Positions 6,363 to 40,472 are shown, counted from the first letter of the stretch. The stretch: 64,000 nt of DNA from Falsihalocynthiibacter arcticus (GCF_000812665.2 NZ_CP014327.1:3563501-3627500), one strand, 5' to 3'. Program-made: numbers and translations. The notes: generated by a model from the letters alone, not told the origin.

Positions 6363-6692
6363 CTCCCGCCCTCCGAATAAACGAAGGACACAAACTGGCG
6401 GATTTTTACTCCGCTACAACTGCGATACGCAGCCGCTTCTGTGGCCCATTATTGCTCCGCGTTTTACACAACAGGCTAAAATCCGACAGGCGGTGGTGCT
6501 GGAGCGGCTACCGTACGTCACCCATTGCTCCCGATAAGAGAAAAATTGAAATCGCGGAATATTGACGCCAGTTTGAAGGCAATGAGAGAAAATCAGAACC
6601 AATTATTTTCGAAGCACAAATAAAACCCTGATTCATCTAAAGCAGGCTGCAAACTGGTCGAAAATATTGCCACCTTAAATTTGCGCTGACCA

Positions 6693-10850: not shown

Positions 10851-12778
10851 AGCTCTTTCAGCCTCTTGTTGAAGTTTTGCAGCCAGCCTTGCCGTGCCTT
10901 GTCGGCTATCCGTAAATGAAAGTGCACGGCGACCTCCGAAGGGCTTGTCAGCCCCCCTTTTGGTGGCGGCAAGCTTTCAAGCAAAAGGGGCAACGCATTT
11001 CCAAGAAGGAATGGGGCACCATATCGAATTCGAGATGGGCCATTGCGCGCACCGCAACAGGGGCTGGGTTTAAGATCCCTGACCGCAACCTTAATCATGC
11101 CATCAGTTTCGTGAGATGAATCCGAAATGACGGAAGTCTTCCGGTCCATCCATCGAGTTGAACTGGCTTTGTCTACTGGAGAAAGCAAAACAATATCACC
11201 ACTCACCTCAATCTCGTCGTCTTCAGTTGATGAATCTTCTTGATCAGGAGCATAATCGTCTACTTCAGCCCGAACGGGTTGGCGAAGACTCAAAGATGCA
11301 CCAAGGGTTTCCTGCGCAACGAGATGTGAAGCCCCGCAATCATGGCATGCCATGAGTTCAAAAACCGCTGCTCCACAGTCACAATGATCGCGTTGGAAAA
11401 TATGGATTTGCCCCCAAGGCCAATCACTGGTTTTGGCGGCAAGTTCCGGAGATCGCGCCCTACAGCTTGAATCGCAGCAAACCCATAATCCTCCCTGAGC
11501 CCGATGAAAGGCATGCATGCGCCAAGGGAGCAGGCGCAGACCTGTAGCCGGATCTTTAGCGCGGGCAACAGTTGAGAGCATCTCAAATGCTTGAGTTCTC
11601 CTTGACGGAGATTCCGAATCAAACTTTACAATATCAGCTACTTGCGTTAGATTTTTGCCGCCATCACGAACCGCATCAACCAGCTTCTGAACAGTTTCAT
11701 CTGCGGCTATTCTGTTATACAAAGCTCCTTCATCAAGAGAGGCAAGTTCTTCTTGAACAAGTGCCCCTAAGCATTGGGGGCTCGGCAAATCCGGCCTAAT
11801 TTCGGCCCCCTCAATGACGTCCACCAAATCTTCCGATACGCCAGCGAGATCTGCAAGGTAGCGGCGAAGTTGATTTCGAGTTTCTTCACCCTCTCCAATT
11901 GTCGCCGACGTAGCGACCAGCCGTACATCTTCAGGATTGACACCAAAGGCTTCGCGAACTCGGCGAAGCATGAGAGCCATTTCAGCTGCTTGAGCTCCAA
12001 CATAGCTATGCGCCTCGTCAAGGATGATCCATTTAAGCTTTCCCTTGGATGCCTCAAGGATTGGACGGTCCTGAGGTCGCAGAAGTAAATATTCCAGCAT
12101 GGTCACATTGGTTACGAGAATTGGGGGAACTTTCGAGCGAAGCTCTTTGCGATTGTTGATCTGCCCAGGCATCGGTCGATGTCGCGGATTTGGTTCCTCA
12201 GGCATGTCTCCATTATAGAGTGCATATGATAGCTGATTTTTGAATGGTGCGACCCAAGCAGACAAACGCTCTCGCTGGGATTCAATCAAGGCGTTTAAAG
12301 GGTACAACGCAATGGCATGGACACCTTTTAAAGATTGATCGCCCTGTGTTTGTTTCAACAAATCATTGATCATGGGGACCATGAAGCACTCAGTTTTTCC
12401 AGAGCCCGTACCGCTGGTAACCATATAAGACCGTTGGCCCTTTGCAGCAATTTCCCACGCTTTTAGCTGGTGCTCATAAGGTTTTCTATCCAATGGCACT
12501 TCGTTGGGCGTCGCCGAAGCCAAGGCTTCTACAAAATCTGGCAGCAAAATACCCGCTTCAGCAACCTCCTTCATAGTAAGGTCCGCAGACTTCCAGACTT
12601 TCTGCGCCTCAAAAATTGGGTCCGCTACAAATCCTTCGCCGAGCGATCCTTCAGTCATACGTCGGCGAAGTGCCTCATTGGCGGACCGAGATGCCATTCT
12701 TCCGTGAGATAGAATTGAATCGGTGGATCGGCGGTTAATGGCCTCAAGAGTGCTCAAGTATTCCGGGAAATCAGTCAT
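10847..12778 (-). CDS. druE: DruE-like Druantia helicase, N-terminal part
   Basis: First RecA-like lobe of a DEAD/DEAH helicase: Walker A TSGTGSGKT at residues 121-129, a DEAH box (ILDEAHSYVG) near 253 and motif III LVATSATIG. I start at ATG 12776-12778, which overlaps the druH stop by eight bases. A longer ORF from 12880 would overlap druH by over 100 bases. The two-gene order, a large domain-less protein then a giant helicase with DUF1998, matches Druantia type III (DruH and DruE), an anti-phage system described from genomic screens. The last roughly 35 codons, after the A4G6 tract, are out of the conserved frame. DISARM DrmA is a weaker alternative: no methylase or PLD gene is nearby. Confidence 0.75.
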   Translation of the reverse strand: MTDFPEYLSTLEAINRRSTDSILSHGRMASRSANEALRRRMTEGSLGEGFVADPIFEAQKVWKSADLTMKEVAEAGILLPDFVEALASATPNEVPLDRKPYEHQLKAWEIAAKGQRSYMVTSGTGSGKTECFMVPMINDLLKQTQGDQSLKGVHAIALYPLNALIESQRERLSAWVAPFKNQLSYALYNGDMPEEPNPRHRPMPGQINNRKELRSKVPPILVTNVTMLEYLLLRPQDRPILEASKGKLKWIILDEAHSYVGAQAAEMALMLRRVREAFGVNPEDVRLVATSATIGEGEETRNQLRRYLADLAGVSEDLVDVIEGAEIRPDLPSPQCLGALVQEELASLDEGALYNRIAADETVQKLVDAVRDGGKNLTQVADIVKFDSESPSRRTQAFEMLSTVARAKDPATGLRLLPWRMHAFHRAQGGLWVCCDSSCRARSPELAAKTSDWPWGQIHIFQRDHCDCGAAVFELMACHDCGASHLVAQETLGASLSLRQPVRAEVDDYAPDQEDSSTEDDEIEVSGDIVLLSPVDKASSTRWMDRKTSVISDSSHETDGMIKVAVRDLKPSPCCGARNGPSRIRYGAPFLLGNALPLLLESLPPPKGGLTSPSEVAVHFHLRIADKARQGWLQNFNKRLKEL

Positions 12779-15700
12779 TACTTGTCTTTCTTTGAAAGAG
12801 AACGGCAATTGCTGCTGGCAAAGCTGCCTCAAAATAAAGCGGATCAATTTGGCGACATTGCAATAGCGCCAGCGCGACATTGGACCAGTCCTGTCGTTCT
12901 TTTAAAACTAATTCTGCTGCCACTATAGGAGCTGCAAGCATTGATCTGCTTTCTCGATCGAAACGCTCCAAAACGCTCCAATTACCCACTGGAGCATTTG
13001 GAAGAAGATTACATCTATCAAAGAGGCGCCGTTTTACCGCGAGTTCAGCCTGCTCTTCGAGTGCCCTCAACGGTTGTGCTGGAGGTGCTAACCCTCGTTC
13101 AACCAATTCGACCGGAGAAAAAATCTCCAGCAATGCAAAGAAAAGGTGCGCAGACAATTCCGGCCTCAGACTAACTATGTTTTCGCAACGAGACATAACT
13201 GTGTCGGAAGCGATTTTATTACAGGTGCCTGTGGGCAAACCGGAGTTTTCCAATATTTTCTGGATATCGGCATAGCAGGAGGCCGCCGCCCTCTTCCATG
13301 CACCAAATGGCAATGTCATCCATGAAAAGGGTGCTTCCTCTTCAAGAGCCAAACGGTCTGCCTGACTGTCGACCTCACTTCGTAACAATATCAAAGTTGC
13401 AGCATCTGGTGTTAACGCCAACGATTGCACCTGATCTATCCACGCCGGCTCGGCAACCTTAGAAACGGAATCAATCAGTAACTCGATGCGCTTCCAATCC
13501 GGGTCTGTTGGAATTGTTACCCGGTGGCGCAAGCACTCGGATATGCGCGCCACTCTTTGCTGACGAGTGGTGGCATTGGCCGCGGATTGTAAATCCAAAC
13601 TGAATGCATTTTTAGTTTCCGCAGGTTCAGTAGAAAAAACTGGTAGTATTGCAGGGCGCATGACTTCGTGCCCTTGAGCCGTAGCTAAAATCATCCAAGG
13701 GCCGGCCGACATATCCAAATGATCGGGCACAAGAGATTCTCGCAAAGATGGCCCGATATTTTGTTCAAAACGAATCTCGGGGTCTGACAGGCTTTGCCAC
13801 TTTATTTGGATCAAATCGCAGCCCTCCCAACTAAGAGAATCCGTACCAACGCGTAATTTGGATGTTGCCTGTGCAATCATAAGTTTTGGAGTTTCGCGAC
13901 CGTGAGCTAAAATACAAATGTCCATTTCCGCATCCGGCCCCCCAAGAGATAGCGCTGACTTAATAAAGCTCGAATAAGCTCCAAGAGAGGCTTCACGGTC
14001 CACCTTGAAGGAAACCGGCGGCCAGCTTGTCCCAGCGGCACCGCGGAGTCTTGCGGACAACGTTCCTCCTACCTCATCAGGGTTAAACAGGCGCCAATCA
14101 TTTAGCTTGCTTCGTGCAATCGTCCTCCGATTTATTAGCTTACAATCGTCCGGCCCAATGATTGCGCCTGACTTTGTCCAAACGTCCAAAACGAGGCGTA
14201 AGCGGTTATCGCCCGCACAAATGTCAAGTTCGGTTTTTGAAGCCTGCTCGGGCAAGTTGGCGAGACTTAACTCGACGCATCTACTCTCAGATACGATCCC
14301 CGTGCTGTCTCCACAACTCACTTGGGCGCCAACCGGCAAACCGGTAAGACGAACACTTTTTTCACGTCCCTTTTCTAAAAACGAAACTAAAAAGTCGTGG
14401 GGCAACATCCAAATTCGCTGTCGAGCGACGACGTCCCCATTGAGTTCCCAGCCTATAGTGGAACCGCCCAATTCTTTTGAGGTGCTAAAGGGAGCCCAAG
14501 AACCTCCAGGCCTAACGGTTCGGAGGTTTCGTTCTGATATATCTGCGCCGTAAGATCCAGCTTCAGATCCAAAAAAACGGGGCCAACCCTTGTAAACGAC
14601 ATCGCCTCCAATTGTCCTAACTCCCAAAGCCACTTTACCCAATGCTCTGATTTGAGCACCAAGTTCCTCATCGCTGGAAGTCTTGAGAGAAAGTGATTGT
14701 GTCCGGCATTGAATGCGTCCCTGCCCAGTTACACAAACCAGAGAATGGTTCTGAAACTTGGTGCGATCAACAATTTTCATACCATCAAAGCACGCGATCT
14801 CAGCGTCAGATTCAGATTGAACAAATAGACGCGAAGCGGTTGTCGCAGCCCGCCCATCTGCAAGATAGTCAAGTTTATCGGGCATATCATCAGATTTGTT
14901 GCGCCCCACCCAAATTCCGGCGAGAGGTCGATCAAAACTGGTTTCTTCTAACCCAGAAATTGAAATTTCTTGTGTAACTTTCCCGTCCGCCAGCACACCA
15001 AAACGCACCGATTCCCCTACTGGCCAAGCAACGGATACAGTTCTTTTTCCAGAAGTACGACGTAGCTCCCACGTCGACCCATCTTCGGACAAGTCACCCC
15101 GGATCAACAGTCCGGGTAGAGCTGCAGACAAAGGACCAGTTGGTCTAAGCCGTATTGCTTGTATAGAGGGGTCGCTCAGTGGAATAATCCCACGGTCAAC
15201 AGAAGCCTTCTCGGGAAATTCGATGAAAGAGCTCCAATCACCATCTTCACGTTTTCTAAGAACCCGAAGAGCGAAATCGTTATGTCTATTTACACGTCTT
15301 TCAGCTTTCAACGCCTCGTCAAGAAGGGACTTAGCGGCATCGATTCCAATATTAATTGAAAGTTCGTTGCGCCAATTTGGTCGTTGCCCATCCAACCACA
15401 CCACTGAAGACTCCCTCGGAATTTGCGGTGGTATCTGTTGACGTGCATTGACCAGCCCTAAAACAAAACCAACGATCAGATCTGAGACATCATCCTGCCT
15501 GAAACCTTCGGGCCAGCGAGAGGTGACGCTTCGTACAAGTCCAGGCAGCGCTTCGGCGGCCATGATCCCGCGGAGCTCGGCTTCTCCAACAAGTCTAAGG
15601 ATTTGAGACCGATATCGTCCCTCGGGCTTGAGCATTTCCTGCGGCAACCCTCCTTCAACCAAAAGAGATTGAAGAAATAAACGCTTATGATCGCTCTTTC

Positions 15701-16067
15701 GAAGGGGTCTTTGCCAATACCGCAATCCCCAAGTCGTAGTTTCTACAAGCTGGGACCATTCGATATTCTTCTCAAGAGCATCTGTAAGAAAACGCCACGT
15801 CAAATGGCTGCCATCATAGCTGCTTCTGAAATGCTCCGTTGCCCAAAGAGTGAATATCGCGGCATAAAGCCCGGATGATTGCGGTTCCGCCGTCATGCAG
15901 TACAGTTGCATTTGGTCGTATTGTTCTTCCGTCACACGATACACGTGTAAAGGTCTCCCGTCTGGCGCCTCCAGGCCCAATTCGGCAAGAATGTCGGTTA
16001 GAATTGCTTGGAACCGGTTTCCGGTTGCGTATGACGACGACAATGGGGATCCAGCACTTTCTAACAT
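12771..16067 (-). CDS. druH: DruH-like protein of Druantia type III (1098 aa)
   Basis: Very large soluble protein with no motif I can name and no signal peptide or membrane segment. Assignment rests on size, on being the only partner of a DruE-like helicase, and on the eight-base overlap (ATGACTGA) with that gene. In Druantia type III the two proteins are the whole defence module; the biochemical role of DruH is not established. The frame is intact, in contrast to druE. The start at 16067 is preceded by a purine-rich stretch (GAAAGAAAGAAAT). A divergent gene begins 645 bases upstream. Confidence 0.65.
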   Translation of the reverse strand: MLESAGSPLSSSYATGNRFQAILTDILAELGLEAPDGRPLHVYRVTEEQYDQMQLYCMTAEPQSSGLYAAIFTLWATEHFRSSYDGSHLTWRFLTDALEKNIEWSQLVETTTWGLRYWQRPLRKSDHKRLFLQSLLVEGGLPQEMLKPEGRYRSQILRLVGEAELRGIMAAEALPGLVRSVTSRWPEGFRQDDVSDLIVGFVLGLVNARQQIPPQIPRESSVVWLDGQRPNWRNELSINIGIDAAKSLLDEALKAERRVNRHNDFALRVLRKREDGDWSSFIEFPEKASVDRGIIPLSDPSIQAIRLRPTGPLSAALPGLLIRGDLSEDGSTWELRRTSGKRTVSVAWPVGESVRFGVLADGKVTQEISISGLEETSFDRPLAGIWVGRNKSDDMPDKLDYLADGRAATTASRLFVQSESDAEIACFDGMKIVDRTKFQNHSLVCVTGQGRIQCRTQSLSLKTSSDEELGAQIRALGKVALGVRTIGGDVVYKGWPRFFGSEAGSYGADISERNLRTVRPGGSWAPFSTSKELGGSTIGWELNGDVVARQRIWMLPHDFLVSFLEKGREKSVRLTGLPVGAQVSCGDSTGIVSESRCVELSLANLPEQASKTELDICAGDNRLRLVLDVWTKSGAIIGPDDCKLINRRTIARSKLNDWRLFNPDEVGGTLSARLRGAAGTSWPPVSFKVDREASLGAYSSFIKSALSLGGPDAEMDICILAHGRETPKLMIAQATSKLRVGTDSLSWEGCDLIQIKWQSLSDPEIRFEQNIGPSLRESLVPDHLDMSAGPWMILATAQGHEVMRPAILPVFSTEPAETKNAFSLDLQSAANATTRQQRVARISECLRHRVTIPTDPDWKRIELLIDSVSKVAEPAWIDQVQSLALTPDAATLILLRSEVDSQADRLALEEEAPFSWMTLPFGAWKRAAASCYADIQKILENSGLPTGTCNKIASDTVMSRCENIVSLRPELSAHLFFALLEIFSPVELVERGLAPPAQPLRALEEQAELAVKRRLFDRCNLLPNAPVGNWSVLERFDRESRSMLAAPIVAAELVLKERQDWSNVALALLQCRQIDPLYFEAALPAAIAVLFQRKTSND

Positions 16068-16711: not shown

Positions 16712-18289
16712 ATGGCTCTCGAGGCAATTAACACGCTCATAGCGCTAAAAAACCGCTATAAACGCTTTTCTATCGCCAACGCAATTGCTGCTATCGGATG
16801 TGGTAGTGTATCCCTCCTCGAAAGCTGGGCCCCTAATCTAAATGACGGAATTCTCATAGTTGGTGCGGTTTTCTGTGTCACTCTTACATATACTTTCCCT
16901 CGGTACATGTTTCTCTGTGGCTCAATTAGGAACTATAGGTTTGCGTGCTCAACCCTAATAACCATATTACAATCTACAGACTCGAAAAAAATCAAGGTGG
17001 AATTTGAAGCTCTAAAATTTAGGTGCCGAAATGCTCCCCTTATCGTAGAGGAAATCCGGCGCCATCAACCGGAAATCCAAGCATGGCTCAAAACCGTCGA
17101 ACAACGAGAAGATCGAGACAGGAACAAAAGCAGCAAGAACAGTAGATGTGTTGAGTTGTCTCGGCATTTTACGGAAATGCGAAATCGCATTAGTCTTCAT
17201 TCACACGAGTTGTGTGAGGCGTCTCCAGCCATTTGCGCAGTCAAAAAACTCTCCGAAAGCATATCTATGCTAACTGCCTTCCGAGAAAACGCTGAAAATG
17301 ATTGGTATGAAGCTGAGAATAAAATGTCTTGGTGGCAAAAACTCACAGTAGACCCTCCAGATTTATCCCAGACAAATCAAAGCATTAAAACACTTCAAAA
17401 AGCGCAAAAGCGACTTTCCACATCTGGTGATATCGAGAAAACTAAATCGTATTTCGCTTCATTAACCATGCGGGCCAACGAACGAATAGATACGCTCGAA
17501 CAAATCGCAATCGGCTCTGTGCCTTCATCGTACCGCACCCCTTATGATAGCAAGACTGTTGCAAAAAGCGCCATTTGGCTATCGGCACTATCAATTCCAG
17601 CGTCCGTTTGGTCCGACATCACTCAAGCTCGGGATATTTACTCCACGCTACGAAATGTGAACAGCAACTTTGCGGATTCGTCAGATGCCGAAATCTGGCT
17701 GCAGAGCCTCATGCTGCCGGGCGAAAGCCTGGCAGGCCTCGTCTCGCTGACCAAAGGAGCTTATTTCGAGTCACTCATTGCAAGCAAGACAGGCGGAGAG
17801 CTTTTTGAAAACTTCAATCACCCTGATACCGATATAGTGATTGATGGCATCGCATATCAATTAAAAGCAACCGACTCTGAGGCCTACCTAAACACCGTCG
17901 CCGACAACATTCCAATCATCGCGACAAGTGAGGTGGCACAGGCGACGGAAGCTATCAACAGTGGAATAGCGAATGTCGACATTGAACAAGCGACCGAGCT
18001 TGCTCTTGGCGGTAGTATTGTCGACTTTAGTGACACTGCTGTCGATGCACTACTAACAGGTGCTGGTAGCATGGGAATCCTTTCGATAATCCGCGGTGTC
18101 GGCTACGCGGCACAGCAGTACAACGATGGTATGGACTGTGAAGAGGCCATCTTTGAGGGAGTTGGTGTAGCGGTTTCCGGAACTGCGAAAGCTTTCGTCG
18201 ATACAGCAGAGCTTGGTTACAAGGCGCTATCCTCACGGCCGAGCCGCTTTGTCGGACGTCAGATTGGTAGGCTCGCATCGAAGATTTGA
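16712..18289 (+). CDS. Two-TM membrane protein with a possible PD-(D/E)XK nuclease domain (525 aa)
   Basis: Residues about 20-75 form two hydrophobic segments (AIAAIGCGSVSLL and GILIVGAVFCVTLTY) that would anchor the protein. A charged, helical middle follows. Around residues 349-385 comes GAYFESL, then DTDIVIDGIAYQLK. A Glu in a helix followed by D-x8-10-QxK is the pattern of PD-(D/E)XK nucleases of the QxK type. The C-terminal 100 residues are Gly/Ala-rich. The family is not recognised and the nuclease call is tentative. It lies divergent from the Druantia genes, so it could be an effector in the same island. About 120 bases of its 3' end recur at 26219-26340. Confidence 0.5.
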   Translation: MALEAINTLIALKNRYKRFSIANAIAAIGCGSVSLLESWAPNLNDGILIVGAVFCVTLTYTFPRYMFLCGSIRNYRFACSTLITILQSTDSKKIKVEFEALKFRCRNAPLIVEEIRRHQPEIQAWLKTVEQREDRDRNKSSKNSRCVELSRHFTEMRNRISLHSHELCEASPAICAVKKLSESISMLTAFRENAENDWYEAENKMSWWQKLTVDPPDLSQTNQSIKTLQKAQKRLSTSGDIEKTKSYFASLTMRANERIDTLEQIAIGSVPSSYRTPYDSKTVAKSAIWLSALSIPASVWSDITQARDIYSTLRNVNSNFADSSDAEIWLQSLMLPGESLAGLVSLTKGAYFESLIASKTGGELFENFNHPDTDIVIDGIAYQLKATDSEAYLNTVADNIPIIATSEVAQATEAINSGIANVDIEQATELALGGSIVDFSDTAVDALLTGAGSMGILSIIRGVGYAAQQYNDGMDCEEAIFEGVGVAVSGTAKAFVDTAELGYKALSSRPSRFVGRQIGRLASKI

Positions 18290-18296
18290 ATAACTA

Positions 18297-20735: not shown

Positions 20736-20824
20736 AGAGAAACTCCCTCCAAATTTATGAAGGGACGGAATCGCATATTAACCACCCAAGGGGAATGTGG
20801 GGTCAAACCAACGGTTACCCATAA

Positions 20825-21101
20825 CCGGCACTGGAAGATTTCGGCCGTGATATCCGAACGCCAATGCAGCATTCATTTGGTGAATGTATTGGTTGAGGAT
20901 GAATCTAAACGAAGCTGCTAAAGTTTGGCCCAGATCGATGGCTTCCCGAAAGCTCAAACCCTCGAGTTATTTGTGCCCTTGCCGGTTCTTCAAAGTCTTC
21001 TGATATTCCCCCATCTATAATCGGGTCAATCCGCAGAATATCATGCCGATGACGCCGTTTTTCAAACGACACGACAATGACGATTTTCTATGACACCCCT
21101 A
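20825..21101. repeat. 277-bp dispersed repeat, copy A
   Basis: Runs from CCGGCACTGGAAGATTTC to CTATGACACCCCT. A second copy of the same length is at 23428-23704 with scattered substitutions and no net length change. It encodes no complete gene; two minus-strand frames stay open for tens of codons, which may be a protein relic. It lies between the IS66 and the nuclease-like gene. Confidence 0.8.
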
Positions 21102-23325: not shown

Positions 23326-23364
23326 TTCCTCTTGAGCAGCCCCACTTGAGTGGCTCAAGAGGAA
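23326..23364. repeat. Perfect 12-bp inverted repeat in a dispersed repeat
   Basis: TTCCTCTTGAGC (23326-23337) and GCTCAAGAGGAA (23353-23364) can form a hairpin. The surrounding 90 bases recur in degenerate form at 26133-26218, where the stem is partly lost. Function is unknown; it is not followed by a T run, so a simple terminator is unlikely. Confidence 0.6.
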
Positions 23365-23427
23365 AGTTGGTGCATGATTGGCCTTTGCTCCACTGGAATG
23401 ATGGCCTCTGGCGCTGGCGGGAGATAT

Positions 23428-23704
23428 CCGGCACTGGAAGATTTCGGCCGTGATAACCGAATGCCAATGCAGCATTCATTTGGTGAATGTATTGGTTGAG
23501 TATGAATCTAAATGAAGCTGCTAAAGTTTGGCCCAGATCGATAGCTTTTCGAAAGCTCAAACCCTCAAGTTATTTGTGCCCTTGCCGGTTCTTCAAAGTC
23601 TTCTGATATTCCCCCATCTATAATCGGCTCAATCTGCAGAATATCATGCCGATGGCGCCGTTTTTCAAACAACACGACTATGACGCTTTTCTATGACACC
23701 CCTA
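23428..23704. repeat. 277-bp dispersed repeat, copy B
   Basis: Same length and order as copy A at 20825-21101 (CCGGCACTGGAAGATTTC to CTATGACACCCCT). It flanks the SNase-like and membrane-protein genes on the right, so the pair at 21318-23143 sits between direct copies. After the repeat, 23705-24082 holds no gene that I can support. Confidence 0.8.
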
Positions 23705-24082
23705 TCTACCTTGACCAAGGACTTGGCAGCTGAACACAAGCAGAGCGAGACGCCCCGCGGTTTGATGTAACCGACGAACATGAAGGTCAAGCAAAGACGC
23801 TGGCCAAAATGACCTTTGGAATACGGAACCGCCAGCACAACAACATTGAGACGCCAATATGGGTGTCCCGGTAAAACCATTTACCGCACCATACCAGGTG
23901 CGGCAAATGGCGACGGCGCTTGACGGTGGGGGATAGTAAAATGCAAACCAGAGTGACAAAGTCACTGCGCACTCTGCCTTTTTATTACCTCCCTATCGTG
24001 CAATTCTTTCGAAGAAAGCGATTAAATGCGGCTATCAACGCATCTAAAATAGCAGTTCCAACCAAACAAAAAGTGGTCTTCG

Positions 24083-24598
24083 CTATGCTTCCGATAGGTA
24101 TTGCCGATATTTTGATCTAAAATCGGCCAACCGTTCGAATGCCTGAAGGGCGCAGACATTGGTTTCGTCGATAGGCAGTTTCGCGCTTCCGTCCGAGAGC
24201 GCTTCCTCAATTACGTCCCATGGTAAAACCTCGCGCATTAACCGACCGTGTGGATTTCCGTCCTTTGGGTTGATCAAGGTCGCTCGGATTGCAGCATTTT
24301 CTGCGGCTTCCAATAGAGAAGGAGAAACGCCAGATACCTCAGCGAGCCAGAACATCATCGGACTACATTTCAATCGGTTCCAAACATGCTTGGCTGGTAA
24401 GCCTGCAGGGTCTATTCCCTTTTCGAGCGCCTTAGCATCTTGGAAGAACATCCAGCCAAGCCAATGCTCGCGCTGAGATCTATACCATTTGCCATGAAAC
24501 CCAGTTCCGATCTGTATTTTCTGCTCAAGAGCCGTTGTTCTTGGAGGAGCAGGCTCAAAACAAGCAATAAACTGTTTTAGACTGCATTGAGTTATCAT
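24083..24598 (-). CDS. Unknown protein, tandem paralog 1 (171 aa)
   Basis: Paralog of the gene at 24675-25190; most residues are identical, including FIACFEPAPPRTTALEQKI and LPWDVIEEAL. I start at the MITQ methionine shared by both copies. It is a soluble protein rich in Trp and charged residues, with no motif known to me. The duplicated unit is about 600 bp and includes upstream sequence. Divergence between copies is spread evenly, so the duplication is not recent. Function unknown. Confidence 0.6.
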   Translation of the reverse strand: MITQCSLKQFIACFEPAPPRTTALEQKIQIGTGFHGKWYRSQREHWLGWMFFQDAKALEKGIDPAGLPAKHVWNRLKCSPMMFWLAEVSGVSPSLLEAAENAAIRATLINPKDGNPHGRLMREVLPWDVIEEALSDGSAKLPIDETNVCALQAFERLADFRSKYRQYLSEA

Positions 24599-24674
24599 TT
24601 TTTTATCTTTCCATTTTTCAACCAATTATCGGCGCACCGAAAGCAGCAGTTCAACCAAACAAAAATGGCCTTCG

Positions 24675-25190
24675 CTATGCATCCGGAAGGTATTGCCGAA
24701 ATTCTGATCTTAAACTCGCCAATCGTTCAAATGCCTGAAGGGCAAAGTAATCGGTTTCGTCGATAGGGAGTTTGGCCACCCCAGCAAAGAGCGCGTCGTC
24801 TATTACGCCCCATGGCAAGACTTCTCGCATCAACCGACCGTGCGGATTGCCGTCCTTTGGGTTAATCAAAGTCGCTCGGATTGCAGCATCTTCTGCGGCA
24901 TCCAAGAGTGAAGAGGAAACGCCAGATGCTTCTGCGAGCCAAAACATCGACGGACTACATTTCAATCGGTTCCAGACAGGCTTGGCTGGTAAGACTCCGG
25001 GGTCTTTTCCCTTTTCGTGCGCCTTAGCATCTTGGTAAAACATCCAACCAAGCCAATGCTCGCGCTGAGATCGATACCATTTGCCGTGGTACCCAGTTCC
25101 GATCTTTATTTTCTGCTCAAGAGCTGTTGTTCTTGGAGGAGCAGGCTCGAAACAAGCAATAAACTGTTTTAGATCGGATTGAGTTATCAT
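24675..25190 (-). CDS. Unknown protein, tandem paralog 2 (171 aa)
   Basis: Upstream copy of the tandem pair, starting at MITQ (24-base spacing from a GGAAAG stretch). Conserved with copy 1: WYRSQREHWLGWMF, WNRLKCSP.MFWLAE and NPKDGNPHGRLMREVLPW. Both frames are intact, which argues for selection on both copies. No family is recognised. The position, inside a defence-like island, is the only hint of role. Confidence 0.6.
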   Translation of the reverse strand: MITQSDLKQFIACFEPAPPRTTALEQKIKIGTGYHGKWYRSQREHWLGWMFYQDAKAHEKGKDPGVLPAKPVWNRLKCSPSMFWLAEASGVSSSLLDAAEDAAIRATLINPKDGNPHGRLMREVLPWGVIDDALFAGVAKLPIDETDYFALQAFERLASLRSEFRQYLPDA

Positions 25191-25329
25191 TCTTTCGAAC
25201 TTTCCATTTTTCAGCCACTTGACCGTGCTTATTAACAAAATGTGTCAATTTTCTGCCCGATTTCAATGAGGTAGAATTGGTTGTGCTGTATGCAATTTCT
25301 ATTCTTCAAGCTAACGCACAATACGGGAG

Positions 25330-26086: not shown

Positions 26087-26132
26087 AACAACGAGGTTTT
26101 TAGCTACGATGGGGTTTTATTTAGACTTTCCA

Positions 26133-26345
26133 TCTTGAGCAGCTTCACTTGAGTGGTCCACGTTGAAAGTTAGTGCATGACTGGACTTTAGTTCACCTGA
26201 ATGATGGCCTCTGGTGTTGCGGTTGCCGGAACTGCGAAAGCTTTCGTTGATACAGCAGAGCTTGGTTACAAGGTGCTATCCTCTCAGCCGAGCCGCTTTG
26301 TCGGACGTCAAATCGGCTCGGCTCGTATCAGAAGTTTGATTACTT
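26133..26345. repeat. Chimeric remnant: hairpin repeat joined to a copied gene 3' end
   Basis: Bases 26133-26218 match 23325-23417 (the hairpin repeat, degenerate). Bases 26219-26340 match 18170-18289, the last 120 bases of the 525-aa membrane protein gene, including GCGAAAGCTTTCGT.GATACA. A second copy of that gene once ended here and has been deleted except for its tail. The following 175 bases to 26519 hold the promoter region of the RecQ-like gene. Confidence 0.75.
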
Positions 26346-26519: not shown

Positions 26520-29500
26520 ATGATAGTTAATTCAGTTTCAACCCGTAGCAAACAGATCCAATTTCGCGCAGGGTACTTTTCAGGTGATATGCTGTTCGAT
26601 GTCGGCGGATTCGAAACAGCTTCTTCCTATGTTCCGGATTTCGTTTCTTCCACATTTAACATTCTTACTCGGGGCGCCCCAACAATACCGTCTGAAACGC
26701 TTCAAAACTCATTGGGGTTTGACAGGGAATCCCTTAGCAAAGAGCAACTTGTCCTGATCGGGGGAAAGGCCCCAGATTGGTCTCAGACGATCAAGGGCAA
26801 CAACGAAGGGTACAACCCAGCCAAGGAGTTCTTCGAAGATATTCTTCCCCATGAACTTGGTGATTTTGCTTTTGTGCAATGCCTAATAGTTCCTGAGTAT
26901 CCATTGTTCGCGATGCTAAATGCACCCGCTTCACTCATAGGAGGGAGCAATCGCGAGTTGGTCGACTTCTATTTGCCTCAGGCTAATCTTGTAATTGAGA
27001 TAGACGGTGGGCAACACGGGGCGCCAGAACAGGCCGCGAAGGACAGAGCTCGGGACCGTTTCTTGGCAGAGAGAAGCATTGCCACCTTGCGACTTCGGAC
27101 TGAGGATATGCGCGCCAAGAACAAGGCATTCAAAAACTTCATGAGTACATTTCGAGAGCATTGTGAACAAAGCTCACAGCTCCCGCCATATCGTATATTT
27201 CACAAGTCAGGCGCGGCGGACGCTCCCTCGTTGCGTTTTGAATTGACGGCATCAATTCGCTTACAGATAGCTGTTATGCTGGCTATTTCATGTGCTCAAA
27301 TCAACTTAACTGAAAAAACTTGGCACCTTGATGTAAGGCAAGACTTCGTCAGTGACCCAGATCGGGATTGGGTGGGTGCCGCACTATCCGAGCTATTCGG
27401 CTATTTCGATCTCTTTGCACGCCTTTCAGGTTCCGTTTTCTCCGAACCAAAAATCGAGTTGAACGACGGCGGCTTAATTTTCGATATAGCTTTGTTCTCC
27501 CGCGTTGATGACAGAACGAACCTCGCTCAACAGATCACGGTTCGCACGGCACCTGTTCAAGATTGTCCAGACGGGCATGGCGGATACTTGCCATATTTCG
27601 GAGTATCCAATCTCCCAACACGAGATTGTACCGACACCGATATTGCTCCAAAAGAGAGTGACCTCGTTGAACTCAATAGAAAAATCTTCGGCCATTTAGA
27701 CTTTCGCCCAGGACAAGTGAACTTAATCTTAAACGCTATTGCAGGACAGAGCACACTTGGACTGATGCCCACCGGTGGAGGTAAATCACTCTGCTTCCAA
27801 ATTCCCGCTATTCTGCGCAAAGGTACGACAATAGTGGTTGTCCCAATCAAAGCCCTTGGTCGAGACCACTGCGCCGAACTAATCCAAGCTGGATTTAGTG
27901 GAAGAGTCGTAAACATAGACAGCGACATGCCTGCTAAACAGCGAAGCGCTGTAATCGAAAGAATGGAACGTGGCGAATTTAGATTTGTCTTTGTATCTCC
28001 GGAAAGGTTTCAGACAGAGGCTTTCCGCGATAGTGTCAAGGTTCTCGACAATGTTCGCGGGCTTAGAATGTTCGTCATCGACGAAATTCACTGCTTGAGC
28101 GAATGGGGCCACGATTTCCGCCCCTCTTACATAACCTTGGCGGGAAGCCTTAGACGACTTTCCCCTGAAGCCCCCGTCATGGGCCTAACCGCAACGGCAA
28201 GCGTAAATGTCCTGAGAGACATTCAAAGCGAATTGCATATCTCGGACGAAATGGTCGCCTACGAGATGCATCGAAGCCGTTCCGAGCTAAATTTCGACAT
28301 CCAGAAGCGGCGAAGTGACCCTCAGGCAATGTGTCAACAAATTCAGGAAATCCAAAAGAAGAGTGATGGCAAAGAATTTCCACCTACACATATTTTCTCA
28401 CGTTACGTGAACGGAAAGAACGGAATTTTGGAATGTGCCCAAGCATTAGCTAAGGCCTTTCCAACTCTTCGCATCGGTCTCTTTTCTGGTAGTAAACCAA
28501 ATAAAATTGACATTTCAACTGCTTCAAAGTGGATGCGAGACGATAATCTGCCACATCCCGAAACATATGAGGACTACAAGAAGACAGTGCAGGCCTCTTG
28601 GAAACACCGTCAACTCGATGTCATAGTGACCACGAAGGCCTTTGGAATGGGTGTAAACAAGCCAGATGTCCGACACACCTTTCATGCGGGCATGCCAAGC
28701 TCAATGGAAGCGTTTTATCAAGAAGCAGGACGCGCAGGGCGGGATCGAGAACCGGCTTTTTGCCATTTACTTTTCGTCCCCGAAAGGGATCCCCCAGAAG
28801 ATATTTGGTCATCGCTCGAAAAAGATAATTCCCCAGATGCTTTAGACGGGATTCTCAACCAAAGCCCCCAACAAGCCCACGGTGACCTCCGCAACCAGCT
28901 ATGGTTTCACAACCAAGGAAATATTGGGTTGAGTGAAGAGCTGGCCCTTGTTGGGAAACTGCACGAAATCATCCGACACTTCAACCAAGACGGCATAGTG
29001 CTTGAACGTTTCAAGCTTGGAACCGCATCCATGACCGGACAGCGTCTTCAGGTCTGCCTGCTCCGATTGTATCAAATGGGCCTCATTGAACCATGGAGTG
29101 TAGTCGACTGGGGCCGTGACGATGGAGGGATACAAAGTGTTTATGTTCGACGTACCAACATAAAATTTGAACCCTCTTGCACCATAGTTCTTGCGAGGAT
29201 GCAGGCGGTCGTTGGTTTGGGTGCCGCAACAGAAGACATGCGAGCGATTGAGGCTTTGAGGGGTCAAAACACCGATTGGAAGGCACTTTCCAAACACCTC
29301 CTTTCCTGGATTCGAAAGACGCAGACGCTGAGTCGCCTCCAGTCGACATGGAACCTTTACCGTGAATGCGCAGACTTCACTCCAGAAGATGCCGACGCAT
29401 TTCGTGATCGCTTAGAAGCCTTTTTCAAGGTGGACAACGATGCTTTCAGCCTTTCAGCACTCAAGGATTTGTCTATCGAAGATGCGACGAAATCTATCTG

Positions 29501-29912
29501 TCAGTTACTAATTGCACCAGGCAGCTTGGAACTTAAAGAACCAGCGGCAATAGGCCGCCTTTCAGCCCAACTTTCACGACAGCTTGAGGGGACGAATGAA
29601 AGCCCCGGTCTGAACCTTGCAGCAGCATCATTAAATATTGTGGGCGAAGGCCTGTTGGTCGGAGATGCGGGTAAACGATTGGAAAACGCTCTTCCAAATG
29701 GAGTGTTATCATTTTGGAATGGGTCTGGGCGATCTCTACTTAATCTGTTGGCATCCGGAAGCTCTTCCTCCCAAGAACTAATAGGAGAGTTACTTGTCGC
29801 GGACAGCCCGGAGACCGAAGAACTTATAAATATTTATGATGACCTTCCGGCTCAAGCCGTGGAGAAAGAACTATATATCAGATTGGCCGACAAACTGGCT
29901 GCAATAATATGA
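26520..29912 (+). CDS. DUF559 nuclease / RecQ-like helicase fusion (1130 aa)
   Basis: Residues about 146-215 form a DUF559/Vsr-like endonuclease domain (VDFYLPQANLVIEIDGGQH) with the E-x-D and Q-x-H signature. From about 395 follows a superfamily 2 helicase of RecQ type: Walker A MPTGGGKSLCF near 416, DEIHCLSEWGHDFRPSY near 521 (DEIH in place of RecQ DEAH), GLTATA, and motifs V-VI with FGMGVNKPD and QEAGRAGRDRE. The C-terminal 350 residues match no RQC or HRDC domain that I can see. Nuclease plus helicase in a defence island suggests DNA unwinding and cutting of foreign DNA. It is followed at seven bases by a coiled-coil gene. Confidence 0.8.
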   Translation: MIVNSVSTRSKQIQFRAGYFSGDMLFDVGGFETASSYVPDFVSSTFNILTRGAPTIPSETLQNSLGFDRESLSKEQLVLIGGKAPDWSQTIKGNNEGYNPAKEFFEDILPHELGDFAFVQCLIVPEYPLFAMLNAPASLIGGSNRELVDFYLPQANLVIEIDGGQHGAPEQAAKDRARDRFLAERSIATLRLRTEDMRAKNKAFKNFMSTFREHCEQSSQLPPYRIFHKSGAADAPSLRFELTASIRLQIAVMLAISCAQINLTEKTWHLDVRQDFVSDPDRDWVGAALSELFGYFDLFARLSGSVFSEPKIELNDGGLIFDIALFSRVDDRTNLAQQITVRTAPVQDCPDGHGGYLPYFGVSNLPTRDCTDTDIAPKESDLVELNRKIFGHLDFRPGQVNLILNAIAGQSTLGLMPTGGGKSLCFQIPAILRKGTTIVVVPIKALGRDHCAELIQAGFSGRVVNIDSDMPAKQRSAVIERMERGEFRFVFVSPERFQTEAFRDSVKVLDNVRGLRMFVIDEIHCLSEWGHDFRPSYITLAGSLRRLSPEAPVMGLTATASVNVLRDIQSELHISDEMVAYEMHRSRSELNFDIQKRRSDPQAMCQQIQEIQKKSDGKEFPPTHIFSRYVNGKNGILECAQALAKAFPTLRIGLFSGSKPNKIDISTASKWMRDDNLPHPETYEDYKKTVQASWKHRQLDVIVTTKAFGMGVNKPDVRHTFHAGMPSSMEAFYQEAGRAGRDREPAFCHLLFVPERDPPEDIWSSLEKDNSPDALDGILNQSPQQAHGDLRNQLWFHNQGNIGLSEELALVGKLHEIIRHFNQDGIVLERFKLGTASMTGQRLQVCLLRLYQMGLIEPWSVVDWGRDDGGIQSVYVRRTNIKFEPSCTIVLARMQAVVGLGAATEDMRAIEALRGQNTDWKALSKHLLSWIRKTQTLSRLQSTWNLYRECADFTPEDADAFRDRLEAFFKVDNDAFSLSALKDLSIEDATKSICQLLIAPGSLELKEPAAIGRLSAQLSRQLEGTNESPGLNLAAASLNIVGEGLLVGDAGKRLENALPNGVLSFWNGSGRSLLNLLASGSSSSQELIGELLVADSPETEELINIYDDLPAQAVEKELYIRLADKLAAII

Positions 29913-29919
29913 GGCAGAC

Positions 29920-30414
29920 ATGACATTCAAAGATGGGTTCGATGCAGTTGACCGTATAAAGGGCGCAGGAGAAAAGCTCAGTGAAACAATTATACGTTTG
30001 GAAAAACTGGAAGGTATTCTCGGCAAAATGGATTCGGAGCGGGCGAATATATCGCTCCTGATCACAGACAGTAGTAGTGCTATCAGTGAGCTGTCTGTTG
30101 CGGTCACACAACTTATCGAAGCACAAACCGCGTTCACCATACAAGCAAGCGCACAGCTTACTGGGCTAAAAGAAGCTACAGAGAGATTACCAAGCCAGAC
30201 CGAATTTATTGTTTCACAGAAACTCGACGACATTTCTGAATATCTCGAAGCACGTTTGACCGAGAGGTTCCGCGAAGAGTTAAAAGACACGCGTGCCAGT
30301 CTTCGCGACAGCGTAGAGGCTGGTCTCTCCGGATATGACAAACGGATCGCTGACTTGAAATCAGAAATAGTGGCGGAAATGCCGAAGACCCTATTTGGTC
30401 GCCGGGGACGATGA
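29920..30414 (+). CDS. Coiled-coil partner of the RecQ-like protein (164 aa)
   Basis: Starts seven bases after the RecQ-like stop with GAGG five bases before the ATG, so the two genes form an operon. Heptad-rich helices run through most of its length (KLSETIIRLEKLEGILGKM, AISELSVAVTQLIEAQ, LEARLTERFREELKDTRASL), and the C-terminus is basic (LFGRRGR). There is no catalytic motif. It likely oligomerises or tethers its partner; this is inference from structure and linkage. I know no named system with this pair. Confidence 0.7.
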   Translation: MTFKDGFDAVDRIKGAGEKLSETIIRLEKLEGILGKMDSERANISLLITDSSSAISELSVAVTQLIEAQTAFTIQASAQLTGLKEATERLPSQTEFIVSQKLDDISEYLEARLTERFREELKDTRASLRDSVEAGLSGYDKRIADLKSEIVAEMPKTLFGRRGR

Positions 30415-30806: not shown

Positions 30807-31862
30807 CTAATCACGCAGTTTTTTAAACAAACTAACAATGTTACTGCGGACCTTCGTATACCCATTGGTCTGCGTCCTGCCTTGTAAGGGATTTGGCTGG
30901 ATCGGCAAGAGCCTTTGGTTTGTTTCTTGGGCAGCGCGCAACCGTACCTCCCAGCGGTGCAATGCCATCTGATTCAATAGACTTGGAAGCTGGGGGTCGA
31001 TCGGATCAATATCATACCAGAATGCGAGGTAGCCACGGATCGTATCTCGGTGACGATTCATCTTTCCTGGATATTTCACGGACATCCTCACAAGTGCAGA
31101 CGTCTTTCTGCGAAAAGCACGTGTCGGGCGAATGCGAGAACCACCTATATCCAGCCCCGTTACCAGTTTAGTCTGTTGAGGGCCAAGATGCCTTGTTTTC
31201 TCCGAATGGATTTCCATATCCAGTGCATCAAGCCCAATCCTTACAACTCTCTCCATTCGGCGAAGAGATGCCGCATCATTTGACGAAATACTAATGTCAT
31301 CAGCATAGCGAGTATAAACTGTCTTGAGGTTATCAGAGGCCTCTTGGCAACGTTCGTCGAATTTGGACATAACAAGATTAGCGATGTGAGGGCTGCTTGG
31401 AGCACCCTGCGGCAACTGCCCGCCATTTGTGACAAGACTAATTATTTCCTCACAAAAAACCTGTGAAAAATGCGGGAAGTGTATTCTAAGCATCTCTCTC
31501 ACATGCGAATCTTTAACAGAAGGGAAGAACGATCGAATATCTGTCGTGAAAAGATGTGATGCTCCATGATGCCGTTGGGCGTTCATCGCGATTGATTTTC
31601 CGCGAACGAAAGCCGCAGCCGCGTCATGAGGTGGCACAGAGGCCAGGAGTCTGTCAAGAAGTGCTCGTTGTATCGATTTGAGGTGTGGGCAAGGTGCGTC
31701 GATTGTTCGATACTTTTTTGATCGGCGTGATTTAATAATAAAGCTATTATAGCTTACCTCACAATCGCAATTTCCTTCTTCCTGAGATACTTCTAAAACT
31801 TGACAGAGAGTGGGGTACTCTTCGAGGATATTGACCTTACGGTCATCTGAACCAAATATCAT
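30807..31862 (-). CDS. Retron-type reverse transcriptase (351 aa)
   Basis: Makes msDNA from a structured RNA template. It has the RT core QLPQGAPSSPHIANLV and catalytic YADD (TRYADDISIS, near residue 185), plus the two marks of retron RTs: NAxxH (NAQRH, near 92) and VTG (KLVTGLDIG, near 232). Length is normal for a retron RT, with no fused effector. There is no group II maturase domain. Retrons defend against phages by pairing RT and RNA with an effector; no obvious effector is encoded next to it. The IS3 upstream or the convergent RecQ-like operon are the only neighbours. Confidence 0.88.
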   Translation of the reverse strand: MIFGSDDRKVNILEEYPTLCQVLEVSQEEGNCDCEVSYNSFIIKSRRSKKYRTIDAPCPHLKSIQRALLDRLLASVPPHDAAAAFVRGKSIAMNAQRHHGASHLFTTDIRSFFPSVKDSHVREMLRIHFPHFSQVFCEEIISLVTNGGQLPQGAPSSPHIANLVMSKFDERCQEASDNLKTVYTRYADDISISSNDAASLRRMERVVRIGLDALDMEIHSEKTRHLGPQQTKLVTGLDIGGSRIRPTRAFRRKTSALVRMSVKYPGKMNRHRDTIRGYLAFWYDIDPIDPQLPSLLNQMALHRWEVRLRAAQETNQRLLPIQPNPLQGRTQTNGYTKVRSNIVSLFKKLRD

Positions 31863-37958: not shown

Positions 37959-38120
37959 TGTCAATCGCAGAGTAAAAAGGGACCAGATCGCGGCGTAAAA
38001 TTGGTCCACTGAGTTCTCGGATGTTCTGCGCTTTGGTGCGCGTGCCCCCAAATAGCTAACGCGTGCCAAAGCGCATGTTGGCCCATGGGCCAACATTGTT
38101 CTGATCTTGATGTGTTTTGA

Positions 38121-38873
38121 CTACTGGCGGTTCTTACGACTGTGTTTGAGCCTATAGCTTTCGCCGTTCATCTCAAGGATGTGGACGTGATGTGTCAAAC
38201 GATCCAGCAAGGCTCCCGTGAGCCGCTCTGAGCCAAAGACTTCGGTCCATTCATCAAAGGGCAGGTTTGAGGTTATGATGATGGAACCACGTTCGTAGCA
38301 CTGCGAGATCACCTCAAAGAGCAATTCTGCGCCGGATTTACTCAGAGGAACGAAGCCTAATTCATCAATGATCAACAGATTCTGGCTCGTCAGTTGCTTT
38401 TGCATGCGCTGCAATCGGAGCTCATCTTGGGCTTCTATCAGATCATGAACCAAGGCTGCCGCCGTCGTGAACCGTACTTTCAACCCTCTTTGGCACGCGG
38501 CTAATCCAAGTCCTAAAGCTATGTGGGTCTTGCCCGTTCCCGATGGGCCGAGGGCAATAATGTTTTCTCTGCGATCCACGTAGTCACATCGAGCCAAGTC
38601 CATCGTCAGTGGCTTGTTCAAGCTGGGCATGATCTTGAAGTCAAAACTATCCAGGCTTTTGGTGCTGGGGAACTTCGCCGCTTTGATCCGCCTTTCGATC
38701 ATCCGCCGTTCGCGGTCAATTAACTCCATCTCGCACAGACGCGCCAGATATTGGATGTGGTCCTTATTCTCAGCAGCACAGATTTGGGCTTGTTTTGCGT
38801 ACTCTCCTTGGAACGTTGGCAAGCGCAACTTCTTGAGGTGGTGGTGCAGAAGGATTTGGGGAGCATCTGTCAT
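38121..38873 (-). CDS. istB: IS21 helper ATPase IstB, copy 2 (250 aa)
   Basis: Protein identical to 4117-4869. Walker A GPSGTGKTHIA and Walker B LLIIDELGF are present. Start overlaps istA. Intact. Confidence 0.95.
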   Translation of the reverse strand: MTDAPQILLHHHLKKLRLPTFQGEYAKQAQICAAENKDHIQYLARLCEMELIDRERRMIERRIKAAKFPSTKSLDSFDFKIMPSLNKPLTMDLARCDYVDRRENIIALGPSGTGKTHIALGLGLAACQRGLKVRFTTAAALVHDLIEAQDELRLQRMQKQLTSQNLLIIDELGFVPLSKSGAELLFEVISQCYERGSIIITSNLPFDEWTEVFGSERLTGALLDRLTHHVHILEMNGESYRLKHSRKNRQ

Positions 38874-40366
38874 GCCGTGGCTCCCAGCAGGCTCATGTAA
38901 CTGGATGGGCGTGTCGTGCCGACATTGGCCTTAGGCAAATACGGGTAGAAGTCCAAATCCAATCGCGGTGGCCGCTTCTCAATACGGCATAGCACAAGGT
39001 GTTTTACGGCATCATAGCCAATAGCGCCCAGATCAATGGCATGCTGGATTGCGCCTTGCACAACGTCCATCTCGAATGTTTCCAAAAGGCGCAGAACTTG
39101 AACGTATTCTCGCTTGCCCGGTTTGCCCATTCTGGCTTCGAGCAGTCGGTGCAGGGTGGCGAAGGCATCCGGTAGATTCCAGCCCTGCAAAGGGGCTGCC
39201 TGATCCAAAGCCCCCACCTTCTGCTCAATCAAGGGCAGGAAGTGGAGCGGGTCAAAGATCATATCCGCGGATAGGTAGGATCGTTTGTGCCGTGCAACGA
39301 TCTCGTTACCGCAGCCGATGATAACCTCATGTACAAACCCACGCACATGAACATCGTGGTGTGCATAAGCCACCGGCACCGAGTAGTCATTGCTGCGATA
39401 GCGCACCATCGAGATCGAAGTGGCCCGTGTGTTGACATGGTCGCAGGCTTCATATTCCGCCACGGGCAACCCCATCAGCGCATCAAAATCGGATACCAAA
39501 CGTTGACCTATGGTTTGGGTGTGGCCGCGCAAAGTATCGTCCTGACGTGCTAAACACTTCGCTTCCAGATGGGCGTTCAAATCATCAAAGCTGTCACAAC
39601 GCGGCGCAGGGACCATGAAGTTGCGACGCGTATATCCAACCATGCCCTCAACGTTGCCTTTATCGTTTCCTCGCGCTGGTCGCCCGAACTTGTCATCGAA
39701 CAGGTAATGGGATTGCAGCTCAGTGAACCGACGTGTGCGAATACGCGTTCTGTCCCCGAGTATCCGCGCAACGGCGATCTTGGTGTTGTCGTAGAGAATG
39801 GACTGCGGAATACCATCAAAGAACGCAAAGGCGGACACATGGCCATCGCAGAATGCTTCCGTCGTCTCGGCAGGGTATCCCTTAACGAACACCGCATCAG
39901 AATGCGGTAAGCTCATTACAAAAAAATGGATCTTGCATTCCACGCCACCAATCACGCCAAGTGTCTCACCAAAATCAACCTGCGCGTGGCCTGGCCGATG
40001 CGACAACGGTACAAACACCTCTTTAGTGCGTCGCTTTTGTTCGCGAACGTAATAGGTCACTGTCGTCAAGCTTCCCGCGTACCCGTGTTCATCCCTCAAA
40101 CGCTCAAAAATACGCTTGGCGGTGTGGCGCTGCTTTTTGATCAGGGCCTTATCTGTACGCAGTATATTATCGATGACACCAACATAATCATCAAGCGTTG
40201 GGCGACGCGGGGCTTCTGAACGCCGATAACCAGGAGGGAGCTCATGCCGCAACATCTTGGCTATCGTTTTGCGATCCTTGTTGAAATAACGCGCCGCTTC
40301 TCGAGTAGACATCCCGTCCTTCAAACAAGCACGGCGCACACGATTATAAATATCCACAGAATACAT
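38870..40366 (-). CDS. istA: IS21 transposase IstA, copy 2 (498 aa)
   Basis: Protein identical to 4866-6362, with helix-turn-helix and integrase core. The only base difference I found between copies, at 39845, is silent (GAC/GAT Asp). Intact. Confidence 0.95.
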   Translation of the reverse strand: MYSVDIYNRVRRACLKDGMSTREAARYFNKDRKTIAKMLRHELPPGYRRSEAPRRPTLDDYVGVIDNILRTDKALIKKQRHTAKRIFERLRDEHGYAGSLTTVTYYVREQKRRTKEVFVPLSHRPGHAQVDFGETLGVIGGVECKIHFFVMSLPHSDAVFVKGYPAETTEAFCDGHVSAFAFFDGIPQSILYDNTKIAVARILGDRTRIRTRRFTELQSHYLFDDKFGRPARGNDKGNVEGMVGYTRRNFMVPAPRCDSFDDLNAHLEAKCLARQDDTLRGHTQTIGQRLVSDFDALMGLPVAEYEACDHVNTRATSISMVRYRSNDYSVPVAYAHHDVHVRGFVHEVIIGCGNEIVARHKRSYLSADMIFDPLHFLPLIEQKVGALDQAAPLQGWNLPDAFATLHRLLEARMGKPGKREYVQVLRLLETFEMDVVQGAIQHAIDLGAIGYDAVKHLVLCRIEKRPPRLDLDFYPYLPKANVGTTRPSSYMSLLGATA

Positions 40367-40472
40367 CTCCCGCCCTCCGAATAAACGAAGGACACAAACT
40401 GGCGGATTTTTACTCCGCTACAACTGCGATACGCAGCCGCTTCTGTGGCCCATTATTGCTCCGCGTTTTACA

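What the first reader, a model, noticed from the sequence alone, without database searches (positions are those of the whole stretch)
26520..30414. Nuclease-RecQ fusion with a coiled-coil partner: candidate undescribed defence pair
Seen: DUF559-type nuclease signature and a full RecQ-type helicase core in one 1130-aa protein, with a 164-aa coiled-coil gene seven bases behind. It sits between Druantia and a retron. The helicase has DEIH in place of DEAH and a large C-terminal part I cannot match. I know no named system with this pair.
Basis: partly seen in the sequence, partly recalled or inferred. Interest (0 to 1): 0.75.

Follow-up and report, generated by a model that had tools for sequence, protein, structure and literature searches.

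The report
Nuclease-RecQ helicase with coiled-coil partner
The two genes belong together: a DNA-cutting, DNA-unwinding fusion protein and a small rod-shaped partner, usually membrane-anchored, are found side by side across many unrelated bacteria, often among anti-virus genes, and probably form an unnamed two-part defence against invading DNA.

Summary
ORF 26520-29912 (1130 aa) carries an N-terminal DUF559 nuclease domain and a RecQ-type helicase core. The 164-aa ORF 29920-30414 is predicted to be one long helix.

Some 30 homologues aligning over most of the protein (plus fragments) were found in Pseudomonadota, Bacteroidota, Bacillota, Chlorobiota and Balneolota. The small partner lies directly behind the helicase gene in 37 of 39 assessable loci; the two exceptions are broken ORFs. 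Among ordinary RecQ genes the figure is 2 of 37. The two genes' similarity matrices correlate (rho 0.735, p = 0.0005). In 32 of the 39 loci the partner ends in a transmembrane helix; in the window and its two closest relatives it does not.

Many loci sit beside restriction systems, Zorya, Lamassu, Druantia, Hhe, Mza or ShosTA genes, or on prophages and phage-plasmids. Relatives in two branches also carry a DprA + phosphoribosyltransferase module.

It is not DpdF, although PADLOC labels it so, and not RqlHI/PsyrTA, lacking both PRTase and DprA.

Best reading: an unnamed helicase-nuclease defence pair whose partner tethers or licenses the enzyme, in most members at the membrane. Defence activity and mechanism are inferred; nothing was tested at the bench.

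The parts
26520..29912 (+). DUF559 nuclease - RecQ-type helicase fusion protein, 1130 aa
   Evidence: ORF; Pfam/NCBIfam/PADLOC domains; full-length homologues; AlphaFold pLDDT 85.9, pTM 0.85
26958..27122 (+). DUF559 (PD-(D/E)XK type) nuclease domain, aa 147-201; E126, D149, E160, D162, H166 identical in 29 of 29 homologues
27675..28775 (+). RecQ-type helicase core, aa 386-752: Walker A GK(422)S, DE(I/V/A)H 521-524, WGHDFR 529-534, motif VI QEAGRAGR 734-741
28929..29159 (+). winged-helix-like unit after the helicase core, aa 804-880 (inferred from the order of predicted secondary structure)
   Evidence: no RecQ zinc-cysteine cluster conserved
29166..29909 (+). C-terminal all-helical region, aa 883-1130, no sequence match in PDB
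29911..29914 (+). GAGG, Shine-Dalgarno-like, overlapping the helicase stop codon and 5 nt before the partner's ATG (translational coupling inferred)
   Evidence: sequence printed
29920..30414 (+). 164-aa coiled-coil partner; one predicted helix (aa 3-160); no transmembrane segment here, basic tail PKTLFGRRGR

Best explanation
The two genes form a mobile, unnamed two-component system that attacks foreign DNA. SHOWN by computation: a conserved two-gene unit; a RecQ-type motor fused to a DUF559 (PD-(D/E)XK-type) nuclease with its catalytic-type residues invariant; a long helical partner that in most family members ends in a transmembrane anchor; frequent neighbourhood with known defence genes. 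INFERRED: the helicase loads on phage or plasmid DNA (ends, gaps or forks), opens the duplex, and the nuclease domain cuts it. The coiled-coil protein binds the enzyme and restricts where or when it acts, in most members by holding it at the inner membrane where injected DNA appears. In the window's branch the anchor is replaced by a short basic tail, so the partner would act there as a soluble scaffold or licensing factor. In some relatives a DprA + phosphoribosyltransferase module, resembling ShosTA and the RqlHI toxin arm, is added upstream (fused) or downstream, probably as a second, suicidal arm.
For: Pair conserved in 37 of 39 assessable loci, gaps of -26 to +12 nt, against 2 of 37 ordinary RecQ loci with any adjacent small ORF and 0 with a C-terminal TM. 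A prophage-like contig found later has the same pair (1176 aa + 218 aa with a C-terminal TM). Similarity matrices of the two proteins correlate, Mantel rho 0.735, p = 0.0005 over 32 loci. Nuclease and helicase residues invariant in 29 of 29. Well-predicted fold with a RecQ core. Patchy spread: 1 of 397 genomes of its own family, 2 of 385 of its class, across several phyla in the tree. Neighbours include type I RM (L045, L052, L063), type III RM (L048), ZorD (L051), LmuB (L069), TmtA (L057), DruE-like (L065), GmrSD-like (L043), ShosTA (L038), Hhe and type I RM (L022), Mza and type I RM (L116). Control neighbours of ordinary RecQ gave 62 PADLOC families, largely methyltransferases and generic kinases, against 243 in the test set.
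Against: No phage assay exists. No physical contact between the two proteins was modelled; only single chains could be folded. In the window's own branch the partner has no membrane anchor, and its two nearest relatives (Cedecea L036, Erwinia L037) sit among ordinary metabolic genes. The 3.4-3.75-residue periodicity of the window's partner is only weakly above shuffles (p about 0.07), so 'coiled coil' rests on the single-helix prediction. PADLOC itself contains broad helicase models, so part of the neighbour enrichment could be generic.
Confidence: 0.6

Rival explanations
1. Toxin-antitoxin type unit like RqlHI/PsyrTA: the helicase-nuclease is genotoxic on its own and the small protein is its restraining partner; phage infection lifts the restraint and the cell dies.
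For: RqlH, a RecQ-like helicase, is genotoxic without RqlI (PMC4670107). Enterobacterial and SAR116 relatives carry DprA and PRTase parts of exactly that network. Small gene placed for coupled translation behind the enzyme gene.
Against: RqlH toxicity lies in its PRTase domain (PMC4670107), which the window protein lacks. The partner is a long helix, usually membrane-anchored, and resembles no known antitoxin.
Confidence: 0.17
2. Exclusion system of mobile elements aimed mainly at plasmids or competing elements rather than phages.
For: Members on IncF-type plasmids, a phage-plasmid with a terminase gene (L021), prophage-like contigs (L030, L122), and next to a phage-type integrase (L042).
Against: Most loci are chromosomal, and phage-defence neighbours are at least as frequent as the mobile contexts. 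Mobility is also expected of phage defence.
Confidence: 0.13
3. Accessory DNA-repair unit: RecQ unwinding plus a nuclease for end processing at forks, tethered by a structural protein, with no immune role.
For: RecQ-family core closest to repair helicases by sequence and fold; Cedecea and Erwinia copies lie among metabolic genes.
Against: Sporadic distribution (1 of 397 in the family), spread across phyla, defence neighbours and mobile carriers; the host already has an ordinary RecQ-like gene elsewhere (G000:C1:1322979).
Confidence: 0.1

Closest known systems
DprA + HAD-PRTase-DUF559-RecQ + small TM protein operon of E. coli/Klebsiella plasmids (NZ_CP067400.1, NZ_AP022114.1; unnamed in RefSeq)
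   Same: 30% identity over aa 47-1058; same small gene directly behind; beside type I RM, Hhe and Mza
   Different: About 430-residue HAD + PRTase-like extension at the N-terminus, DprA gene in front, TM anchor on the small protein
RqlHI / PsyrTA (RecQ-like helicase with PRTase + DprA-like antitoxin)
   Same: RecQ-type motor; some family members recruit DprA and a PRTase
   Different: Window protein has no PRTase and no DprA partner, but has a DUF559 nuclease and a coiled-coil partner; PADLOC PsyrT matches only the helicase core (216 bits)
ShosTA (PRTase + DprA)
   Same: Module fused in front of, or placed behind, the pair in relatives L021/L022/L024/L053/L047 and L038
   Different: Absent from the window
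DpdF of the 7-deazapurine-in-DNA (Dpd) system
   Same: PADLOC model PDLC02868, labelled DpdF, matches aa 69-1130 at 1181 bits
   Different: NCBIfam DpdF 186 bits against cut-off 550; no DpdA in the whole genome
SNIPE, a membrane-bound nuclease that cuts phage DNA during injection (PMC13190303)
   Same: Analogy only: a DNA-cutting enzyme held at the membrane
   Different: Here the anchor is on a separate partner protein and the enzyme is a helicase-nuclease; the window's own partner lacks the anchor

Membership tests
RecQ-family helicases | TIGR00614 score above curated cut-off 219.8 | tested here: met
   264.8 bits; motifs invariant
Housekeeping RecQ | TIGR01389 cut-off 640 | tested here: not met
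   280 bits; a separate RecQ-like gene exists elsewhere in the genome
DUF559 nuclease (PF04480) | Pfam gathering score and conserved acidic/His residues | tested here: met
   29.3 vs 20.6 bits; E126, D149, E160, D162, H166 in 29/29
DUF559 nuclease (PF04480) | DNA cleavage activity | not testable with these tools
   needs purified protein
Dpd system (DpdF) | NCBIfam NF041063 cut-off 550 | tested here: not met
   185.8 bits; the PADLOC PDLC02868 label rests on a model that fits this family
Dpd system (DpdF) | DpdA in the genome | tested here: not met
   no match in G000
RqlHI / PsyrTA | PRTase domain fused to the RecQ helicase | tested here: not met
   no PRTase hit in the 1130-aa protein
RqlHI / PsyrTA | DprA-like partner gene | tested here: not met
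   E. coli DprA finds no window ORF at E <= 1e-3
ShosTA | PRTase + DprA pair | tested here: not met
   absent from the window; present in relatives only
Two-gene family described here | full-length DUF559-RecQ protein followed directly by a small all-helical gene | tested here: met
   37/39 loci against 2/37 controls; Mantel rho 0.735
Two-gene family described here | C-terminal transmembrane anchor on the partner (majority feature) | tested here: not met
   maximum 19-residue hydropathy 1.3 at residue 44, none at the C-terminus; same in L036 and L037
Anti-phage defence system | protection against phage | not testable with these tools
   needs a phage challenge

The most novel reading that the evidence does not exclude
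A widespread, undescribed class of immunity in which a tail-anchored coiled-coil protein stations a RecQ-DUF559 helicase-nuclease at the inner membrane to destroy DNA as it enters, with an optional DprA-PRTase suicide arm attached either by fusion or as separate genes; the window's branch is a soluble derivative.
Probability: 0.3. Interest if true: 0.8.

Novelty: new variant of a known kind. Interest (0 to 1): 0.62.

Why it matters
It adds a testable, unnamed two-gene unit to the catalogue of helicase-nuclease defences and corrects a database label (DpdF) that hides it. It also shows a modular network in which the same RecQ-type motor is combined with a nuclease, a membrane-anchored helix and/or a DprA-PRTase toxin module. 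If the anchor does what it suggests, it would be a way of telling foreign from own DNA by place of entry.

Tried and rejected
DpdF/Dpd membership was rejected on score and on absence of DpdA. A search with the whole helicase in 196 relatives only found ordinary RecQ, so later searches used the N-terminal part or alignments. The phage collection gave only RecQ-core matches, none covering 80% of the query. BLASTP found no match between the window's small protein and the E. coli one: the link rests on gene position, length, helical make-up and matrix correlation, not on pairwise identity. Foldseek gave only RecQ cores, no match to the full architecture. The viral-library and own-phylum searches mostly returned short DUF559-only matches. 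Literature searches found no paper describing the pair, but only open-licence PMC papers are held and supplementary tables could not be read. Promoter and terminator scans gave nothing above shuffles. The idea that the window once had the DprA-PRTase part was considered: nothing in the window supports it.

Full report
OBSERVATION. The window holds an intact 1130-aa ORF (26520-29912, +) and, seven bases on, an intact 164-aa ORF (29920-30414, +). The large protein has a DUF559 match at aa 147-201 above Pfam's cut-off, DEAD and Helicase_C domains, and passes NCBIfam's RecQ-family cut-off but not that of housekeeping RecQ. A GAGG motif overlaps its stop codon five bases before the partner's ATG (sequence), consistent with coupled translation (inference). 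The feature is far beyond chance: full-length homologues exist in several phyla.

FAMILY. A genome scan found two relatives at 50% identity over the full length (Cedecea davisae L036, Erwinia sp. L037) and some thirty more at 26-34% over most of the protein in Bacteroidota, Bacillota, Chlorobiota, Balneolota and SAR116 alphaproteobacteria; below these the list becomes ordinary RecQ. Plasmids of E. coli, Klebsiella and Raoultella carry further copies, and 7 of 5,426 complete E. coli genomes have the E. coli type. In the host's own family it is present in 1 of 397 genomes, in the class in 2 of 385. The tree puts the window with Erwinia and Cedecea (support 100/100) next to the SAR116 copies (98/98); its nearest kin are gammaproteobacterial, so horizontal transfer is the simplest reading.

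THE PARTNER. Among 39 loci whose large ORF could be assessed, 37 have a small ORF (100-267 aa) placed -26 to +12 nt from its stop codon. The two exceptions are broken genes, and one of these (L058) has a 197-aa ORF after the second half. Of 37 ordinary RecQ loci, two have any such neighbour and none has one with a C-terminal hydrophobic segment. Some of the 39 are near-identical (the four enterobacterial/Advenella copies; L040/L041), so the independent number is a little above 30. In 32 of the 39 the small protein ends in a transmembrane-like segment. Pairwise similarity of helicases and partners is correlated (rho 0.735, p = 0.0005, 32 loci). A contig found after this analysis, carrying phage-type genes and an integrase-like gene, has the same arrangement, a 1176-aa protein with a 218-aa partner ending in a hydrophobic segment. 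AlphaFold gives the window's partner as one helix, residues 3-160, mean pLDDT 93.7. In the window, Cedecea and Erwinia the anchor is missing and the tail is short and basic (PKTLFGRRGR, PRGILGRRGA, PRGLFGRRKG).

THE LARGE PROTEIN. The model (pLDDT 85.9, pTM 0.85) shows a nuclease domain inside an N-terminal region, the two-lobed helicase, then a helix-strand-helix-helix-strand-strand unit at about 804-880, which I read as winged-helix-like, and a helical array to the end. Foldseek matches only RecQ cores. No conserved cysteine cluster for a RecQ zinc site was seen.

SURROUNDINGS. Type III Druantia lies at 6693-16067 with DruE split by a frame change, and a retron-type RT at 30807-31862. Among relatives, defence neighbours within the fetched flanks are: type I restriction (L045, L052, L063), type III restriction (L048), ZorD (L051), LmuB (L069), TmtA (L057), DruE-like (L065), a GmrSD-type protein (L043), Hhe plus type I RM (L022), Mza plus type I RM plus PD-(D/E)XK genes (L116) and type I RM (L117, L118). 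A PADLOC scan of 96 neighbour proteins matched 243 families; a size-matched set beside ordinary RecQ genes matched 62, largely methyltransferases, generic kinases and a dGTPase. These are counts of families, not of systems, and serve as a rough comparison. Cedecea and Erwinia copies sit among metabolic genes.

LINK TO DprA-PRTase MODULES. In enterobacteria and Advenella the large protein has an extra HAD + phosphoribosyltransferase-like N-terminus and a DprA gene in front, with ShosA/PsyrA and weak ShosT similarity. The Chloroherpeton copy has the same extension and the end of a DprA gene. In SAR116 L038 a PRTase gene and a DprA gene follow the pair directly. The fused and the unfused forms lie in different branches, so the association probably arose more than once. 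RqlH, a RecQ-like helicase with a PRTase domain, is genotoxic when its DprA-like partner RqlI is missing (PMC4670107), and a DprA-PRTase pair protects E. coli against T7 and lambda (PMC9122126). The window has neither part.

MECHANISM. From the anatomy I take the enzyme to be a DNA motor with its own cutter, and the partner to be the element that decides where or when it acts; at the membrane in most members, soluble in this branch. A precedent for destroying phage DNA at the entry site is SNIPE (PMC13190303), by analogy only. Shown: gene pairing, motifs, anchors, neighbours. Inferred: binding, membrane recruitment, DNA cutting, phage protection.

IDENTITY. It is not DpdF: 186 bits against a 550 cut-off and no DpdA in the genome, although PADLOC's PDLC02868 carries that label and fits the protein over its length. 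It is not RqlHI/PsyrTA or ShosTA by their defining parts. RefSeq leaves the E. coli forms unnamed while naming neighbouring hhe and mza genes. Literature searches in the held library found no description; this does not exclude one elsewhere.

VERDICT. A real, conserved, unnamed two-gene unit, very probably for defence against foreign DNA; a new variant of helicase-nuclease defence rather than a new principle, unless membrane stationing is demonstrated.

Noticed in passing
window 6693-12880 (-): DruE of the type III Druantia is split over two overlapping frames (677 + 1385 aa) that match consecutive parts of one DruE profile, so this Druantia is probably inactive unless the break is a sequencing error.
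   Followed up: partly
window 3955-6468 and 37959-40472: Two direct copies (2514 bp, 99.96% identical) of an IS with an IstA/IstB-like gene pair bracket the 31-kb island that holds Druantia, the pair and the RT, as in a composite transposon.
   Followed up: partly
window 26128-26342: Just upstream of the pair lie a 131-bp relic of the 3' end of the gene at 16712-18289 (89% identical to 18163-18292) and an 87-bp relic of 23326-23411; also 20821-21101 is repeated at 23424-23704 (95%). Scars of rearrangement inside the island.
   Followed up: partly
window 24083-25238 (-): Tandem duplicate genes (180 and 187 aa; DNA 24033-24627 and 24627-25220, 85.6% identical) with no match in Pfam, NCBIfam or PADLOC.
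   Followed up: no
window 16712-18289 (+): 525-aa protein next to Druantia whose C-terminal part matches the PADLOC candidate-defence model PDC-M72B (1.8e-15).
   Followed up: no
L121 838-3639: An alphaproteobacterial relative of the large protein has an extra N-terminal zinc-ribbon-like segment (CPDCSSEM...CSNFPRCKG) before the nuclease part; the contig ends before any partner gene.
   Followed up: no
L073 1913-5289: In an actinobacterial contig the DUF559 part and the helicase part are on separate ORFs (370 and 729 aa), with the small TM gene still behind.
   Followed up: no
L117 13810-15055: On an E. coli plasmid an IS5 copy has inserted into the end of the helicase gene, separating it from the small gene.
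   Followed up: no
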